Shown here: positions 12,556 through 18,453 of the stretch, piece by piece
Layout: the number at the start of each line of letters is the position of its first letter
Position numbering within the stretch: position 1 is the first letter of the stretch
Assembly (NCBI GenBank): GCA_017453205.1
Contig: JAFTKO010000021.1
Location: forward strand, 186,001-250,000
Direction: 5' to 3'
Length of the DNA: 64,000 nucleotides
From: Clostridia bacterium
Lineage (GTDB): Bacteria > Bacillota > Clostridia > Oscillospirales > CAG-272
Made by a program: the position numbers and the translations under genes
Notes under the pieces: generated by a model
What the model saw: the letters and a program-made list of their open reading frames with translations, nothing else
Database searches by the model: none
Told to the model about the DNA's origin: nothing

Positions 12556-13563
12556 ATGAAAAAAGATGTGATCAAAATCAAAAAATGGCAGTTGCTGCGC
12601 CGACGCTCGCGTGAGGAGCTTGCCGATCTTTCGACTGCGGACTTTGTTGCAGTGGGGAAACGCGCCTTTCACGGGCAAAAACGCCTCGAGGAAGTGATCC
12701 TGCCCCCCGCGGCGTCGGCAATCAAGACCGAAGCCTTTCGCGGATGCAAGCGATTGAAAAAAGTTGTTTTGCCTTGCAACAGCAACGTGGGGCTTGCCAA
12801 TGGGGCGTTTTGGGGGTGTACTCGATTGCAGACCGTGGAAAATACCGCGCTGATCTCGTCGGTCGGTGTGCGTACCTTTGCGGATTGCCGTATGCTGAGG
12901 GAGGTCGCGTTTGGCAGAGAACTGCGAAAGATCGGAGATGAAGCCTTTCGGGGCTGTCGATCGCTGCGCACTTTGTTTCTCCCCTCCTGCCTTACGACCG
13001 TTGGAAAAGCCGCGTTTGGCGATTGCACGGAATTGGAGCGCGTGGACATGGAGGACGCCCTGTCGGCAACCGCTCCCGAACTTTTCCGTGGATGCATTTC
13101 GCTTTCCGAGGTGACGTTTGCGACGGGATGGAGGGAGATACCCAAAGGAACCTTCCGCGATTGCTCTGCGTTGACAGAGATGACCGTACCGATGCAAATA
13201 CAAAAGATCGGACGCCGTGCCTTTTTCGGTTGTGCTCGTCTCACAGCGGTCACACTGGAGAACGGCGTGACACACATCGGTGCAAAAGCATTTGCAAAAA
13301 CGCCGCGGCTGAAAGAAGTTGTCGTTTCTAACTCGCTCAAACGCCTCGGCTCTGGTGCGTTCGGACTTGGTTTTTCCAAGGAAAAGATTACCGTATGCGT
13401 CGAAAACGAATATATGCTCCGCCGCCTAAAGCGGTTGCTTTTCCTCTGCGGTTCCTCCGGACGTGTCCGCGTCGAACAGATCGGCAAAACACTCGAAGAG
13501 CGCAAGCGCGAACGCCGCCGTACTACGGTCGAGCAAACACCTGTGCATTTGATTGATGAATGA
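12556..13563 (+). CDS. BspA-type leucine-rich repeat protein without signal peptide
   Basis: A 335-residue protein built almost entirely of about ten LRR_5 (BspA/TpLRR) repeats, each resembling IGDEAFRGCRSLRTLFLPSC. The N-terminus, MKKDVIKIKKWQLLRRR, is basic, with no signal peptide or membrane helix, so it should stay in the cytosol. Most BspA-type repeats are on secreted proteins, including the subtilase in this window. The last 45 residues are charged and probably helical. Function is unknown; a binding scaffold is the safest guess. A bidirectional terminator follows at 13572. Confidence 0.75.
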   Translation: MKKDVIKIKKWQLLRRRSREELADLSTADFVAVGKRAFHGQKRLEEVILPPAASAIKTEAFRGCKRLKKVVLPCNSNVGLANGAFWGCTRLQTVENTALISSVGVRTFADCRMLREVAFGRELRKIGDEAFRGCRSLRTLFLPSCLTTVGKAAFGDCTELERVDMEDALSATAPELFRGCISLSEVTFATGWREIPKGTFRDCSALTEMTVPMQIQKIGRRAFFGCARLTAVTLENGVTHIGAKAFAKTPRLKEVVVSNSLKRLGSGAFGLGFSKEKITVCVENEYMLRRLKRLLFLCGSSGRVRVEQIGKTLEERKRERRRTTVEQTPVHLIDE

Positions 13564-13619: not shown

Positions 13620-14786
13620 TCACATACTCTCATTCAAAATTTTTATTACCTCGTCACGGGTGAGGATCTTATAGCCGCCCTCCATAATCAGCGTGGCGTC
13701 GGCAATCCTTTTAAGCATATCTTCGGTCACACCAAGATCTGTTAAGTTCATGACCAATCCGAGGTGCTTCATCCATGTCTCCATGGCACAAAGACCTTCG
13801 TTGGAAATCTCTTTGTCGCTCTTTCCGTTGGGCGTGACATTCCATACGTTGATTGCATAGCGTTTGAATTTTGCAAGTCCATAGGGTAAAATGTAGCGAA
13901 GATACGGTATTGTGACGGCAGAAAGTGTCATGCCGTGTGTCGCGTTGGTGTAAGCACCGATCGCTTGACCGATCATATGTGTTTGCCAATCGGTGGATTT
14001 GCCCTTTTCCACCAACTTGTTTAGTGCCCATGTGGCAGTCCACATGATATTACTTCTTGCTTCGTAATTGTACGGCTCCTTTACGGCGATCGCAACGCTG
14101 TGGATCAGAGATTTTAACAATCCCTCCATAATATAGTCGGAGGTGTTGTCATCCTCTCCGCAAAAATACTGCTCGAGGATATGGGACATAACGTCAAAAA
14201 ATCCGGCGACCATTTGATGTCTGGGCAAAGTATAAGTAAATTCGGGGTTAAGGATCGAAAATTTGGGAAAGATCTCTTCCTCAAAAACATGTCCGATCTT
14301 CCAATTCGTTTCGGTGTTGGTCAGTACTGCGGTGGTGTTCATTTCACTTCCTGTGCCCACCATGGTGAGCACGCAACCGACGGGAACGGTCTTGTTTTCC
14401 AGCTTGCCGCCGTTGAGGTAGTATTTCTCCCACGGATCCTCCGTGCAGTATGCCGATGCCGAAACCGCTTTTGCGTAGTCGCAAACACTGCCGCCGCCCA
14501 CCGCAAGAATGAGATCGATGCCGTTTTCTTTTACGGTGCGGCACCCTTCGTAAAGTTTTGCCACCGTGGGGTTGGGCATGACGCCCGGATCCTCAACCAC
14601 CGTTTTACCGTTAAATTTTAAAATTTCAATGATACGCTCGTAAATTCCGTTTTTCTTGATCGAACCCCCGCCGTAGGACAGCATCACGTTTTTGCCGTAT
14701 TTGGGGAGCTCCTCGTTCAGCCCTTGCAAGGCGTCCTTGCCAAAGTAGAGCTTGGTGGGGTTGCAATAAGTAAAATTTCCTAACAT
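13620..14786 (-). CDS. Iron-containing alcohol dehydrogenase (butanol dehydrogenase type)
   Basis: A 388-residue group III alcohol dehydrogenase. Visible features are the NAD(P)-binding GGGSIKKNGIY and AVGGGSVCDYAKAVS, the metal-ligand helix FFDVMSHILEQYF, and a later His in NATHGMTLS. The opening MLGNFTYCNPTKLYFGKDAL is typical of NADPH-type BDH/YqhD-like members. It is the last gene of the glycyl radical operon, 20 bases after the activase. This suggests it reduces an aldehyde made by the dehydratase, a common pairing in diol-dehydratase pathways; the actual substrate is unknown. Confidence 0.9.
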   Translation of the reverse strand: MLGNFTYCNPTKLYFGKDALQGLNEELPKYGKNVMLSYGGGSIKKNGIYERIIEILKFNGKTVVEDPGVMPNPTVAKLYEGCRTVKENGIDLILAVGGGSVCDYAKAVSASAYCTEDPWEKYYLNGGKLENKTVPVGCVLTMVGTGSEMNTTAVLTNTETNWKIGHVFEEEIFPKFSILNPEFTYTLPRHQMVAGFFDVMSHILEQYFCGEDDNTSDYIMEGLLKSLIHSVAIAVKEPYNYEARSNIMWTATWALNKLVEKGKSTDWQTHMIGQAIGAYTNATHGMTLSAVTIPYLRYILPYGLAKFKRYAINVWNVTPNGKSDKEISNEGLCAMETWMKHLGLVMNLTDLGVTEDMLKRIADATLIMEGGYKILTRDEVIKILNESM

Positions 14787-14806: not shown

Positions 14807-15712
14807 TTAAAATGTGCAGGGAAGCTTGGTTTTTGCATTAAGATATTCGCAATACGATCTCATGAACTCGTCGGTTTGCGGGGCGTCAAAAAATTTGGTA
14901 TAGGGTTGCTCCAATATTTGATATTTGGACTCGGAAAGATGATTGTATTTGAGCAATTCCACGCGCAGAGCGGTTTTATCAAGCGAGTTAAGGATCTCGG
15001 TAAATTGCTCGAGGTCCGTATCCGAGTCGTTAACGGTTGGAATGACAGGAATGCGAATAATGACGTTTTTTTGTGTCTGGGTAAGTCGGGTGATATTTTC
15101 AAGGATCCGCGTATTGTTCTGCCCCGTGTAGGTACGATGCTTTTCGGGATCGGGGATTTTGAGGTCGGCAAAAAAGAGATCTATATAAGGTAAAATCTTT
15201 TCAACACTTTCCCATGGCACAAAAAATGCGCTTTCAACCGCGGTGTGGATACCTTCCTGCTTGCATTTTTTTGCAAGCTGTGCTATAAAGTCGGGCTGCA
15301 GCAGACATTCCCCACCCGAAAAGGTAACTCCCCCGCCGCTTTTGTCGTAAAAATGCTTGTCTTTGACAATCACTTCCAGTAGCTCGTCAATGCTTTTTTC
15401 TTCGCCGATCAGCTTGAGTGCCCCCGTGGGACAAAGCTGACTGCAACGTCCGCAGGCGGTGCACCCCTCTCGCACAAGGTGCAATTTTCCGTCCTGCACG
15501 ACATGATGCACGGGACAAAGTGTGACACACCTGCCGCAACCGATACATTTGCTTGCGTAGTGGACCAATTGTTTGTTTTTTTGCAGTGTTTCGGGATTGT
15601 GGCACCACTTGCAACGGAGTCCGCATCCCTTGAAATAGATCACTGTTCGGATTCCCGGACCGTCATGCAGGGAGCATCGGGTAATGTCGGAGACGGTAGC
15701 CGTTAGAGACAT
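14807..15712 (-). CDS. Glycyl radical enzyme activating protein (radical SAM)
   Basis: A 301-residue radical SAM activase that would abstract a hydrogen from the glycine of its partner enzyme. The SAM-cluster motif reads CGLRCKWC near residue 30. It is followed by two ferredoxin-type 4Fe-4S motifs, CIGCGRCVTLCP and CTACGRCSQLCP, as in activases of glycerol-dehydratase and choline-lyase type enzymes rather than the shorter PflA. FSGGECLLQPDF and DLKIPD are further family marks. It overlaps the end of the upstream GRE gene by 10 bases, which strongly implies translational coupling and a dedicated enzyme-activase pair. Confidence 0.95.
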   Translation of the reverse strand: MSLTATVSDITRCSLHDGPGIRTVIYFKGCGLRCKWCHNPETLQKNKQLVHYASKCIGCGRCVTLCPVHHVVQDGKLHLVREGCTACGRCSQLCPTGALKLIGEEKSIDELLEVIVKDKHFYDKSGGGVTFSGGECLLQPDFIAQLAKKCKQEGIHTAVESAFFVPWESVEKILPYIDLFFADLKIPDPEKHRTYTGQNNTRILENITRLTQTQKNVIIRIPVIPTVNDSDTDLEQFTEILNSLDKTALRVELLKYNHLSESKYQILEQPYTKFFDAPQTDEFMRSYCEYLNAKTKLPCTF

Positions 15713-18312
15713 GAGTGCTTGGTCCTTCCAATGATGTGGTCTTGTAGCTCGGGGGTGAGCAGATTGAATTTTTGGCTAAATCCCGAAACGCGGACTGCGA
15801 GATTGTTATATTTTTCGGGGTGCTTTTTTGCGTCAATCAAGGTGTCGGCATCTACGGTGTTAAATTGCACGTTGCTCAACCCCTTTTCGGCGCTTGCAAG
15901 CAGGATGTCCACCAAAAAGGAGATATTGCGGTCGGAGAAGAGCTTGGGATCGATCTCGATAATCGCGGAGGTCGAGCCTGCAGTGCGCTTGGTGGGGAAT
16001 TTGGAAATCGAGTTGAAGAGCGCGGTCACACCGTTGAAGTCACGCCCTTGCATGGGAGAGACACTGTATGCAATGGGTTCTCCCTTGTGTCTGCCGTCAG
16101 GGGATGCTGCACTTTCTTTGCCAAATTCAATCATCCAAAGGTAAGTAAAGGGTTGTGCATGGAATGCCATGCCGTATTTTTCGGATAGTGCGTCAAGATA
16201 GTCGCAACATTTATTGGTAATATCCACGGCGATGTTGTCCACGCTGTCGATATCGTTGCCGAATTTTGCCGCCTTGTTGATAAATTCCTCACGCACGCTC
16301 TCATCGGGATAGTCATTGACCAGAATATCTCGGAGCTCGGCAAGTGTATATTTGTGTTCTTCATATATGAATTTACGTATGACCTCAAGAGAATCGGCAA
16401 GATTGGGAATCCCGCCCAGCATAATTTGATAATAGTCGTATTTTGCCCCCTTGTCGTTAAAATCTCTGCCGCTTTCGATGCATCCCGCAGTAAGGAGCGA
16501 TTTGACGGGCTTTGGGCGAATCGGCATTGCGTAATCGGTCATTTTTTTGGTGACGCTACAGGTCAGATCCAAAATATGCTCGACCTGTACCAGTACGGCA
16601 TCGTAGAATTTTTTGTAGGTATCAAAGCTGTCGAGCTCACCTGTTGCAACACCCGTCTCGTACTGCGGATACATCATGCTGTGTCCGTTGCAAAGCACGT
16701 ATTCAATCGCCTTGAGCAGGTTGGTGTTGCCTGTGGAGGCGTGCGGGTTGGATTGCCCCGGGATCACGGTCTCTACACAGCCGATCTGCGTATAGTCGCA
16801 GGCGTCCTTATGTGAGATGCCTTTTTCCTCCAGTGCGGGAATAAAGACATCGTCGTTAAAGAAGAAGGGGATCCCTTTTTGTACATGCCCCACGACCTCC
16901 AACGCACGTTTGAGGAAGTCATGTTCGGTGTTTTTGGAGAAACGGACCGAAAGACAGCGTACAAAGTCAAATTGCTCGGTGGCGTCAAGCATCATGTAGG
17001 AGAGCTCATTGACCTGTGAGGTACCTTCGGGAGATGTACCGCCTACGCAGGATTGTTGACAGTCGTAGTCGCGGTAGAGCTTGAGCCATAAGCAACAGAC
17101 CAGTTCAAACGCCTCGTCCTTGGTCAGTTTGCCCGCTTCAATGTCCTTTTGATAATAGGGATACAGAATTTGGTCGAGTCTACCAAGGGAGTTGGCATTG
17201 ATTTTGTCCTCCCAGGTGTTGACCACATGTGCAAACCAAAGTGCCTGTACCGCTTCGTGAAAGCTTGCGGCAGGATGCTCCGGCACACGGTTACAGACCG
17301 CAATCACACGCTCCAAATCCTTTTGCACATATGCGGAGTCATTGGCATCAAGCAAGCGTTGTGCTTCAAGTGCATATTTTTTACCCATTTCACAGGCGGC
17401 GGTGCAGATGTTGCGCATTGCCGTATAAAGCGCATTGGTGCCGTTTTGCCGCTCATAGCGTTCCACCTTTTCAAGCAAGCCTCGAAAGCCGAGCTTGAGC
17501 ACCTGCTCGTAACCGATGACCGTGTGATTACAGCTCATGCACTTTCCGATAGATGCCCACTCGGCGCGGGAGTCGGTTTCTTCCTGTGTCAGTATAGGTG
17601 ACTTGGGGGGCTCTCTGCGCAAGTCTCCCACCGCAAAATAGCGCTCGATATCCTCGTCGGTGATCCCGTTTTTTCGCATCAGTGCGATCTCTTCCTCGGA
17701 ATTTTTGGGGTTGTAAGATTCCCAATGACGGGTGTCGGGAAAGTTGAAGCCAACAATCAACTCACCGGGGGTGATGACGGGTATAAATTTATTGAGCGTG
17801 TTGGTAACACCCTCGCCGACGGCATCCATGTAGGAAAGACCGCGGGCACGTGCCTCACCGTAGCCGATCGCAAAATGCACATTGCGTTGAACGAGATATT
17901 TTTGTTCATACGGGTTCTGCTGGGCGACAATCATTTGCCGCATAATTTCGCATCTGTCATTTAATTGATACATGTTAAACTTTTTCCTTTCATGATATTG
18001 TAGCGCATCCTTGGTGTTTTGCTTGTATTTTTTGGGATAACAGCCAAATTCTGCCAAAAATGCTTTGTTAAAGCCGCTGATGTCATCGTAACCGTAGTCC
18101 ATAGCGACATCAGTGATCTTTTTACCGTCGAGAATATCGAGGCAGGCAAGTTGCAGACGAAAATGCCGCACATACTTGACAAAGGATTTTCCTGTGTAGG
18201 CATGGAATTTCGAGCAAAAATACCATTTGGAGTATCCGAATTTTGCGGCGGTTTCCACGGCGGTTAACGGTGTTTTGATATTTTCGTGGATATATTTGAG
18301 AACATTATACAT
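15703..18312 (-). CDS. AraC DNA-binding domain fused to a glycyl radical enzyme
   Basis: One uninterrupted 869-residue frame. Residues 1-100 are a complete AraC/XylS double helix-turn-helix (TAAKFGYSKWYFCSKF; ITDVAMDYGYDDISGFNKAF) with no sensor domain. From residue 114 it is a full pyruvate formate-lyase-family enzyme. The thiyl cysteine is in GCVE (Cys512, Glu514), a dehydratase or C-N/C-C lyase signature rather than the Cys-Cys of PFL; the glycyl radical loop is RVSGFS (Gly844). The start at 18312 follows GGGGAGG; the upstream ATG at 18330 overlaps that site. GAAAGGAAA also precedes the Met at residue 114 (17973), so a separate enzyme form could be made. Substrate unknown. With activase and Fe-alcohol dehydrogenase downstream, a dehydration-reduction pathway is likely. 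Confidence 0.85.
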   Translation of the reverse strand: MYNVLKYIHENIKTPLTAVETAAKFGYSKWYFCSKFHAYTGKSFVKYVRHFRLQLACLDILDGKKITDVAMDYGYDDISGFNKAFLAEFGCYPKKYKQNTKDALQYHERKKFNMYQLNDRCEIMRQMIVAQQNPYEQKYLVQRNVHFAIGYGEARARGLSYMDAVGEGVTNTLNKFIPVITPGELIVGFNFPDTRHWESYNPKNSEEEIALMRKNGITDEDIERYFAVGDLRREPPKSPILTQEETDSRAEWASIGKCMSCNHTVIGYEQVLKLGFRGLLEKVERYERQNGTNALYTAMRNICTAACEMGKKYALEAQRLLDANDSAYVQKDLERVIAVCNRVPEHPAASFHEAVQALWFAHVVNTWEDKINANSLGRLDQILYPYYQKDIEAGKLTKDEAFELVCCLWLKLYRDYDCQQSCVGGTSPEGTSQVNELSYMMLDATEQFDFVRCLSVRFSKNTEHDFLKRALEVVGHVQKGIPFFFNDDVFIPALEEKGISHKDACDYTQIGCVETVIPGQSNPHASTGNTNLLKAIEYVLCNGHSMMYPQYETGVATGELDSFDTYKKFYDAVLVQVEHILDLTCSVTKKMTDYAMPIRPKPVKSLLTAGCIESGRDFNDKGAKYDYYQIMLGGIPNLADSLEVIRKFIYEEHKYTLAELRDILVNDYPDESVREEFINKAAKFGNDIDSVDNIAVDITNKCCDYLDALSEKYGMAFHAQPFTYLWMIEFGKESAASPDGRHKGEPIAYSVSPMQGRDFNGVTALFNSISKFPTKRTAGSTSAIIEIDPKLFSDRNISFLVDILLASAEKGLSNVQFNTVDADTLIDAKKHPEKYNNLAVRVSGFSQKFNLLTPELQDHIIGRTKHSCL

Positions 18313-18335
18313 TCGGACACCTCCCCTCATATAAA

Positions 18336-18364
18336 AGTATAGCAGTTTTGAGAGCTGATTTCAA
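18336..18364 (-). promoter_or_regulatory. Promoter of the AraC-GRE operon
   Basis: Minus strand: TTGAAA (18364-18359), a 17-bp spacer, TATACT (18341-18336). Transcription would start about 17 bases before the ATG at 18312, giving a very short leader and supporting that start over 18330. Confidence 0.7.
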
Positions 18365-18422
18365 GTCCAAAGTTGCGATGTTTTTGATTTGGAAAAGTAT
18401 GAATGGATGTAAAATCAATTGT

Positions 18423-18453
18423 CCCCGCCGTATCCTTTCGGGATGCGGCGGGG
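18423..18453. terminator. GC-rich hairpin after spoIVB
   Basis: CCCCGCCGTATCC pairs with GGATGCGGCGGGG (one internal mismatch), loop TTTC. It lies 30 bases beyond the spoIVB stop; the minus-strand flank is only moderately T-rich. Confidence 0.55.

What the first reader, a model, noticed from the sequence alone, without database searches (positions are those of the whole stretch)
15703..18312. AraC-type DNA-binding domain fused in frame to a glycyl radical enzyme
A single reading frame joins a complete double helix-turn-helix to a full glycyl radical enzyme with Cys512/Glu514 and Gly844. A catalytic, oxygen-sensitive radical enzyme that also carries a sequence-specific DNA-binding module could autoregulate its operon, sense its own substrate, or localise to DNA. 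Activase and Fe-alcohol dehydrogenase are translationally linked downstream. I know of no characterised enzyme with this architecture.
Basis: partly seen in the sequence, partly recalled or inferred. Interest (0 to 1): 0.8.

Follow-up and report, generated by a model that had tools for sequence, protein, structure and literature searches.

The report
Radical enzyme fused to its activator
One bacterial gene joins an AraC-type DNA-binding domain to a glycyl radical enzyme with intact catalytic residues, an architecture shared by about two hundred related proteins, and it likely lets the enzyme switch on its own operon through a conserved promoter site while a second, internal start is predicted to make the enzyme alone.

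Summary
Window 15703-18312 (-) is one 869-aa frame: an AraC double helix-turn-helix (HTH), then a glycyl radical enzyme (GRE) with Cys512, Glu514 and Gly844. It is no frameshift or join: 219 of 308 aligned sequences carry the fusion, 213 of them with all three catalytic residues.

Three further findings. (1) A 20-bp element (RCAAnnnTGGAGTwG) lies 18 nt upstream of the -10, overlapping the -35. It is the best site in 12 of 13 fused loci, including the whole 64-kb window. It tracks the recognition-helix Trp: canonical at 12 of 12 loci with it, 0 of 7 without. (2) At the joint sits a Shine-Dalgarno plus in-frame ATG, exactly where unfused orthologues start, with codon-level selection. (3) Catalysis and DNA binding come apart: three fused lineages lost catalytic residues but keep the HTH (one with its operator); two DNA-verified unfused members lack HTH and operator but keep catalysis.

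Likely mechanism: the enzyme domain is the sensor of a self-activating AraC activator, and the internal start supplies free enzyme. Binding, activation, ligand and two products are inferred. The pocket matches no GRE subfamily I tested. Literature searches listed no description.

The parts
15703..18312 (-). AraC HTH - glycyl radical enzyme fusion, 869 aa
18016..18309 (-). AraC-type double helix-turn-helix (about residues 2-99 of 869)
   Evidence: HTH_18 E 2.1e-18, HTH_AraC E 2.5e-8; one search matches to SoxS, RamA, MarA, Rob
15703..17973 (-). glycyl radical enzyme domain and predicted free-enzyme product from the internal ATG 17971-17973
   Evidence: PF02901 E 3.1e-119, PF01228 E 7.1e-23; catalytic codons Cys 16777-16779, Glu 16771-16773, Gly 15781-15783 (computed from the frame)
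17985..17991 (-). internal Shine-Dalgarno GAAAGGA before the in-frame ATG 17971-17973
18320..18326 (-). Shine-Dalgarno GGGGAGG of the full-length start
18336..18341 (-). predicted -10 (TATACT, preceded by TGC)
18360..18379 (-). operator-like 20-bp element ATCGCAACTTTGGACTTGAA, overlapping the -35; predicted binding site of the fused HTH
   Evidence: leave-one-out rank 1 in 64 kb (17.4 bits, next 12.4)
18423..18453 (.). G+C-rich hairpin between spoIVB and the fusion promoter, probable end of the neighbouring unit
   Evidence: read from the sequence
14807..15712 (-). radical SAM GRE-activating enzyme, overlaps the GRE by 10 nt
   Evidence: TIGR02494 341 bits over its cut-off 174.35; next to the GRE in 12 of 20 other loci
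13620..14786 (-). iron-containing alcohol dehydrogenase, same strand, not conserved in relatives
   Evidence: in 0 of 20 other loci

Best explanation
The fused gene encodes a glycyl radical enzyme that likely acts as the ligand-sensing half of a self-activating AraC-type transcription activator, and a conserved internal ribosome-binding site at the joint is predicted to supply the same enzyme without its DNA-binding domain. Steps: (a) shown: one frame, intact catalytic residues, HTH and activase next door; (b) shown: a 20-bp element overlapping the -35 at fixed distance from the -10, covarying with the HTH; inferred: the fused HTH binds it and recruits polymerase as MarA/SoxS do at overlapping sites; (c) inferred: the GRE domain dimerises and senses substrate, or its own radical state, and thereby controls binding; (d) shown: Shine-Dalgarno plus ATG with codon-level selection at the joint; inferred: two products, a scarce regulator-enzyme and abundant free enzyme; (e) inferred: the enzyme is a dehydratase-like GRE in carbohydrate breakdown; substrate unknown.
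For: Fusion conserved: 120 of 120 listed hits, 219 of 308 aligned sequences, 209 after collapsing those over 97% identical. Triad intact in 213 of 219 fused. Operator: unbiased 20-bp motif search on 9 upstream regions, 23.3 bits against 16.4 +/- 0.5 in 12 shuffled sets; 13 of 14 main-clade upstream regions, near-copy L002 counted, score above every one of 100 shuffles; leave-one-out rank 1 in 12 of 13 loci; 18 nt to the -10 in 12 of 13, 19 in L070. Covariation: Trp36 present in the 12 loci with the canonical site; L067 (Trp36 to Cys) has a divergent site in the same place; L074-L076 (no Trp) have none in the promoter and unfused L064, L071, L073 none at all. A second site in L069 precedes a neighbouring lipoprotein gene. 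Internal start: SD energy <= -5.5 kcal/mol at 13 of 14 junctions against 29 of 244 other in-frame Mets; Arg codons AGA/AGG 22 of 24 at the junction against 185 of 489 elsewhere; synonymous-shuffle Fisher p 7e-5; Met near the junction in 203 of 219 fused; unfused L005 and L007 start there. Dissociation: L048 lost Glu, internal SD and adjacent activase but keeps HTH and operator; {L060, P0197, P0198} and P0231 also lost catalytic residues; HTH more conserved than the enzyme core in pairs with these (L060/P0198 0.95 against 0.86; P0231/P0190 0.50 against 0.32).
Against: No DNA binding, transcript or protein was measured. The operator could belong to another regulator: free AraC genes lie near the fusion in L001, L003, L067 and L068. 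Part of the motif (T15, G17) may simply be the -35. L048 has almost no internal SD (-1.1), L067 breaks the operator consensus, and the codon test is weak locus by locus (4 of 14 with p under 0.05). Loci share ancestry, so tests across loci overstate independence. The clade with L059, L060, L062 has neither internal Met nor this operator, so those features are not universal. HTH leading over core is not limited to dead members: active P0190/P0128 also shows it (0.54, 0.47), while dead L048 does not stand out (0.73/0.72, 0.61/0.61, 0.67/0.63 against three active relatives). Seven of 16 fused loci lack an adjacent activase, most of them with intact catalytic residues, so its absence beside L048 says little.
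Confidence: 0.58

Rival explanations
1. The fused HTH autoregulates its operon constitutively or by simple feedback; the enzyme domain is carried along and senses nothing. The fusion only ties regulator dose to enzyme dose.
For: Operator and HTH covary and that says nothing about the enzyme domain. Most members are catalytically intact (213 of 219), so a role for the enzyme domain beyond catalysis is not required in them.
Against: Three fused lineages kept a large, probably dead GRE domain with the HTH; a domain that senses nothing should be trimmed away, as in MarA or SoxS.
Confidence: 0.2
2. It is a repressor-type trigger enzyme like PutA: the fusion sits on the -35 without substrate and leaves when substrate is bound.
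For: The element overlaps the -35, where a bound protein could also block polymerase.
Against: The -35 is weak (TTGTTT, TAGATT, TTGAAA), the spacing to the -10 is fixed, the -10 is often extended: the pattern of activator-dependent promoters. AraC-family HTHs are mostly activators (recalled).
Confidence: 0.13
3. Translation in practice starts mostly at the internal ATG; the HTH region is a rarely translated relic and the unit is an ordinary GRE operon controlled by an unlinked AraC protein.
For: Strong internal SD; free AraC genes near some loci; unfused members with the same pocket.
Against: The HTH frame is intact in 219 sequences, its identity between relatives is close to that of the enzyme core, and its recognition residue covaries with the operator. 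The clade with L059 has no internal start, so there the fusion is the only product.
Confidence: 0.08

Closest known systems
Glycyl radical dehydratases: Clostridium butyricum glycerol dehydratase (1r8w/1r9d) and Roseburia inulinivorans propanediol dehydratase (5i2g)
   Same: Best fold matches (TM by target 0.84 and 0.82) and best profile match (1r8w); Cys, Glu and the His equivalent to glycerol dehydratase His164 kept in all 214 fused members that have Glu; GRE-activase-FeADH order in the window resembles dhaB1-dhaB2-dhaT (recalled)
   Different: Positions equivalent to His281, Ser282 and Asp447 (numbers recalled) are Asn, Ala and Val/Ser in 213, 212 and 209 of 214; about 27% identity; none of the 25 NCBIfam models listed reaches its cut-off; HTH fused in front
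MarA/SoxS/Rob, AraC-family regulators with an N-terminal or sole double HTH
   Same: HTH matches SoxS, RamA, MarA, Rob chains; GCAA-type box, site overlapping the -35, and a recognition-helix Trp as in SoxS/MarA (box and Trp recalled)
   Different: C-terminal domain is a full radical enzyme instead of nothing or the Rob ligand domain
Other AraC-enzyme chains: 'Beta-xylosidase/AraC-like DNA-binding protein' of Bacillus coagulans (PMC11575207, one table row seen) and Ada (recalled)
   Same: AraC-type HTH and an enzyme domain in one annotated protein
   Different: Different enzyme class; whether the xylosidase protein has an internal start or a self-operator was not looked at
Trigger enzymes (PutA, BirA, NadR; recalled) and BzdR (PMC3602430, abstract start seen in the listing)
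   Same: Enzyme or enzyme-like domain and DNA-binding domain in one chain
   Different: None known to me joins an AraC HTH to a glycyl radical enzyme or carries a conserved internal start at the joint

Membership tests
Glycyl radical enzyme superfamily | PFL-like and Gly_radical domains over Pfam cut-offs | tested here: met
Glycyl radical enzyme superfamily | Catalytic Cys, Glu (GCVE) and radical Gly | tested here: met
   Window has all three; 213 of 219 fused sequences
Glycyl radical enzyme superfamily | Fold of solved GREs | tested here: met
   AlphaFold2 pLDDT 93.7; Foldseek to 5i2g and 1r8w E about 2e-47
Glycyl radical enzyme superfamily | Radical installed by a cognate activase | not testable with these tools
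   Activase overlaps the gene; installation untested
Pyruvate formate-lyase in the strict sense | Two adjacent active-site cysteines (recalled); TIGR01255 cut-off | tested here: not met
   GCVE motif; TIGR01255 114.8 bits against 994.2
Glycerol/propanediol GRE dehydratase subfamily | His281, Ser282, Asp447 of glycerol dehydratase (positions recalled) | tested here: not met
   Asn378, Ala379, Ser532 in the window, 875-aa numbering
Hydroxyproline dehydratase, CutC, sulfopropanediol dehydratase | NCBIfam equivalog cut-offs | tested here: not met
   347, 323 and 340 bits against 1100, 1050 and 1000
AraC/XylS DNA-binding family | Two HTH motifs over Pfam cut-offs | tested here: met
   model helices 2-89
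AraC/XylS DNA-binding family | Binds a specific DNA site | tested here: inconclusive
   Conserved covarying operator, no binding assay
Trigger enzyme | Metabolic state of the enzyme controls gene expression | not testable with these tools
   Needs ligand and reporter assays

The most novel reading that the evidence does not exclude
A radical enzyme is itself the metabolite sensor of a transcription activator: substrate binding or the glycyl radical state of the barrel sets the pose of two AraC heads at one promoter, while an internal start makes the free enzyme from the same gene. Evolution then split the two jobs, giving dead-enzyme regulators on one side and regulator-free enzymes on the other. 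Oxygen, which cleaves GREs near the radical Gly, would leave the DNA-binding head attached and could be read as a second signal.
Probability: 0.4. Interest if true: 0.88.

Novelty: new variant of a known kind. Interest (0 to 1): 0.74.

Why it matters
If right, this is a one-gene metabolic switch in anaerobes: sensor, activator and oxygen-sensitive catalyst in one chain, with the free enzyme made from the same frame. It would add glycyl radical enzymes to the enzymes that act as transcription factors, make radical state a possible regulatory signal, and give natural mutants (dead-enzyme regulators, regulator-free enzymes) that separate the two functions. It also warns that gene callers may place starts at the internal site and hide the fusion.

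Tried and rejected
Assembly join or frameshift: rejected, the fusion is in many independent assemblies.

GRE-activase-FeADH as a conserved dehydratase-reductase unit: rejected, Fe-ADH in 0 of 20 other loci (some loci end soon after the GRE).

Glycerol or propanediol dehydratase: rejected on pocket residues (positions recalled). Neighbours do not name a substrate: glycoside hydrolase and polysaccharide lyase genes near several loci (GH127, GH88, GH29 twice, GH106, GH123, GH38, GH3, heparinase; 39 neighbour proteins scanned) but no shared partner was seen except the activase.

Own-genome regulon: loose pattern RCAANNNNGGANTNG gave 62 places, 9 for the reversed control. Besides the window's own site I fetched DNA around 35 of the other 61 and scored the best site of each stretch; none scored 16 or more with a -10 at 18 nt (L104 and L110 pass 16 but lie inside open frames). 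So no second target was found in this 73%-complete genome, but 26 places were not read.

Distribution, at E <= 1e-110, fused or not, own genome counted: 5 of 394 genomes of the order (one of the five, G148, unfused), 11 of 391 of the class (G655 and G518 unfused), 1 of 398 of the phylum; among 34 other genomes of the genus the best match is only E 2.4e-86, about 32% identity. Patchy, possibly transferred.

Rows left out: the SD test used 14 of 17 fused loci (L059 and L062 lack the Met; L060 was dropped by the script filter and also lacks the Met). Near-copies L001/L002 both stayed in that test; L002 was left out of the operator leave-one-out. In the motif discovery 9 of 16 upstream regions were used (L004, L067, L069, L070 not located by the script, L074-L076 left out on purpose) and one of the 9, L003, had a wrong start, corrected. 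One search also showed that L067 (32 of 100 shuffles reach its score), L074 (85), L075 (81) and L076 (29) have no significant site; L075 holds a 15.1-bit match inside another frame. Unfused proteins in the tree may partly be gene-caller starts at the internal site; only L005, L007 and L058 were checked in DNA, and L061/L077 is cut by a contig end. The junction table used a wrong column and is replaced.

Papers: searches gave listings; I opened two papers by passage search only (PMC4207490; PMC11575207). Neither passage set describes an AraC-GRE fusion.
Full report
WHAT IS THERE. Window 15703-18312 on the minus strand is a single frame of 869 codons. Its first about 100 residues are an AraC-type double helix-turn-helix and residues from about 114 on are a complete glycyl radical enzyme: PF12833, PF00165, PF02901 and PF01228 all exceed their Pfam cut-offs. 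An AlphaFold2 model on an 88-sequence alignment has mean pLDDT 93.7 with both parts well predicted and a long helix (93-113) between them; its best solved matches are propanediol and glycerol dehydratase GREs. An activating enzyme overlaps the stop by 10 nt; an iron alcohol dehydrogenase follows after 20 nt.

IT IS A FAMILY. All 120 listed database hits carry both domains, at 62-69% identity apart from the window's own 100% entry. Searches from two distant members brought in fused relatives down to 29% identity to the query used. In an alignment of 308 sequences (290 database proteins, the window, 17 loci) 219 are fused and 89 not; 209 fused remain after collapsing those over 97% identical. 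Genome searches at E <= 1e-110 found relatives, fused or not and the own genome counted, in 5 of 394 genomes of the order, 11 of 391 of the class and 1 of 398 of the phylum; none of the 34 other genomes of the genus has a close one. Named records are MAGs of Clostridia, Oscillospiraceae and Clostridiaceae, four of seven from goat or water deer gut. In a tree of the enzyme part all 38 fused rows fall in one node (100*) that also holds 13 unfused rows; other unfused rows lie outside. This is best read as one old fusion with later losses of the HTH, with the caution that some unfused database proteins may be gene-caller starts at the internal site, and that multiple gains are not excluded.

A CONSERVED OPERATOR. 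A motif search with no prior on upstream DNA of 9 fused loci gave a 20-bp element, 23.3 bits against 16.4 +/- 0.5 (maximum 17.3) in 12 dinucleotide-shuffled sets. Of 17 fused upstream regions, 13 hold it at a score no shuffle of 100 reached; the four without are L067, L074, L075 and L076. Aligned on the element, the -10 follows after 18 nt in 12 of 13 loci and 19 in L070, G precedes the -10 by two bases in 10 of 13, and there is no good -35: the 3' end of the element occupies it. Leave-one-out, it ranks first in 12 of 13 loci (203 kb in all), the window included; L067 ranks ninth in its locus. In L069 a second copy stands before the next gene, a predicted lipoprotein that looks to me like a solute-binding protein, though Pfam finds no family over its cut-off.

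IT COVARIES WITH THE HTH. The loci with the canonical element all have Trp at position 36 (875-aa numbering) in the first recognition helix: 12 of 12. L067, Trp to Cys there and Lys to Arg in the second helix, has a divergent element at the same place. L074, L075 and L076, with Ala or Tyr, have none in the promoter; unfused L064, L071 and L073 have none in 11.3, 5.9 and 10.1 kb (best 5.0, 10.9 and 8.4 bits). So 12 of 12 against 0 of 7; by my arithmetic the chance of that split under random labels is 1 in 50,388, too small a figure because the loci share descent. In SoxS and MarA the Trp of this helix contacts the GCAC box (recalled); here the box is GCAA.

AN INTERNAL START. In most of the main clade the joint reads Tyr-Tyr-Glu-Arg-Arg/Lys-(x3)-Met, which in DNA is GAAAGGAGA or close to it, then ATG. 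The Met is where unfused L005 and L007 begin. Predicted pairing with the 16S tail is -5.5 kcal/mol or better at 13 of 14 junctions against 29 of 244 other in-frame Mets. Arg codons in the eight upstream codons are AGA or AGG in 22 of 24 cases, against 185 of 489 elsewhere in the same genes; with the peptide held constant and codons redrawn, the combined p is 7e-5, though only 4 of 14 loci are under 0.05 alone. Where the peptide shifts, the DNA follows: EKRR in L046 and L054 keeps the ribosome site one codon later. A Met lies within four residues of the joint in 203 of 219 fused sequences. The exceptions include L048 (Met but weak ribosome site) and the clade of L059, L060 and L062, which has no Met there and would make only the fusion.

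TWO JOBS THAT COME APART. Of 219 fused sequences 213 have Cys, Glu and Gly. L060, P0197 and P0198 have Glu to Gly; L048 has Glu to Gly with neighbouring changes (GCAGS), so not a single misread base; P0231 has Ser, Asp, Ser; P0042 has Gly to Ser alone. In L060 and P0231 the radical domain falls below the Pfam cut-off. Three of these cases lie on separate branches (the place of P0231 is unsure, its branch is long). All keep the HTH. L048 also keeps the operator but has lost the internal ribosome site, and no activase lies in the 10 kb held, of which only 2.1 kb are downstream of the gene. In L060/P0198, L060/P0199 and P0231/P0190 the HTH is more conserved than the enzyme core (0.95/0.86, 0.70/0.55, 0.50/0.32); in active pairs of the window the core leads (0.70/0.75, 0.68/0.75). 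It is not a clean rule: L048/L054 is even (0.73/0.72), and active P0190/P0128 (0.54/0.47) and the fusion-only pair P0121/P0123 (0.72/0.60) also favour the HTH. The mirror image: L005 and L007 lack HTH and operator but keep the triad. This double dissociation is the main reason to think the enzyme domain is a sensor as well as a catalyst.

WHAT THE ENZYME DOES. The pocket signature His269, Glu374-Asp375, Asn378-Ala379-Asn380-Ser381, Asn528 and His530 (875 numbering) is kept in 212-214 of 214 fused members with Glu, and the positions compared in 29 unfused sisters (269, 378, 379, 528, 530) are kept in 26 to 29 of them, gaps counted as missing. It keeps the His of glycerol dehydratase but not His281, Ser282 or Asp447 (positions recalled; alignment). 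None of the 25 NCBIfam models listed is passed (TIGR01774 408 bits against 678). Surroundings are rich in glycoside hydrolases. I infer a dehydratase-like reaction on a sugar-derived compound; the substrate is open.

MECHANISM. Most likely the fusion binds its own promoter over the -35 and activates it when the barrel holds substrate, and the internal start then supplies free enzyme in excess. The binding, the sign of regulation, the ligand and the two products are all inferred.

NOVELTY. Searches of the paper library for this fusion and for AraC trigger enzymes listed no description of it; I read listings, plus passages of two papers. The library lacks most subscription journals. One source names a relative 'pyruvate-formate lyase/AraC-like DNA-binding protein' (P0132), so the architecture has been seen by annotation; and an AraC-xylosidase chain is annotated in Bacillus coagulans, so AraC-enzyme fusions exist. 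This is a new variant of a known kind.

Noticed in passing
G000 (own genome): Ten PF02901 matches, nine glycyl radical enzyme genes by open frame, in a 2.3-Mb genome that is 73% complete; of the eight laid out as loci, only the window's shows the HTH.
   Followed up: partly
G000 contigs C29 and C37: Pattern matches recur in mirrored order on both contigs and the fetched stretches L108 and L109 show the same site: probably a duplicated region in the draft genome.
   Followed up: no
L072:6689-7861 and L058 beside the GRE: A URO-D family protein lies beside the GRE in L072; a frame beside the unfused GRE of L058 looks like the same family by eye.
   Followed up: no
L068:11234-12037, L067:3953-4852, L001:1992-2789, L003:7592-8626: Stand-alone AraC regulators sit beside or near the fusion in these loci; they could compete for the operator.
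   Followed up: partly
P0057 and unfused database proteins such as P0209, P0212: Starts inside the HTH (P0057) or near the joint may be gene-caller choices, which would hide fusions in databases; no DNA at hand to check.
   Followed up: no
window 12556-13563: BspA-type leucine-rich repeat protein (PF13306, E 7.4e-71) beside the operon, no link to the GRE seen.
   Followed up: no
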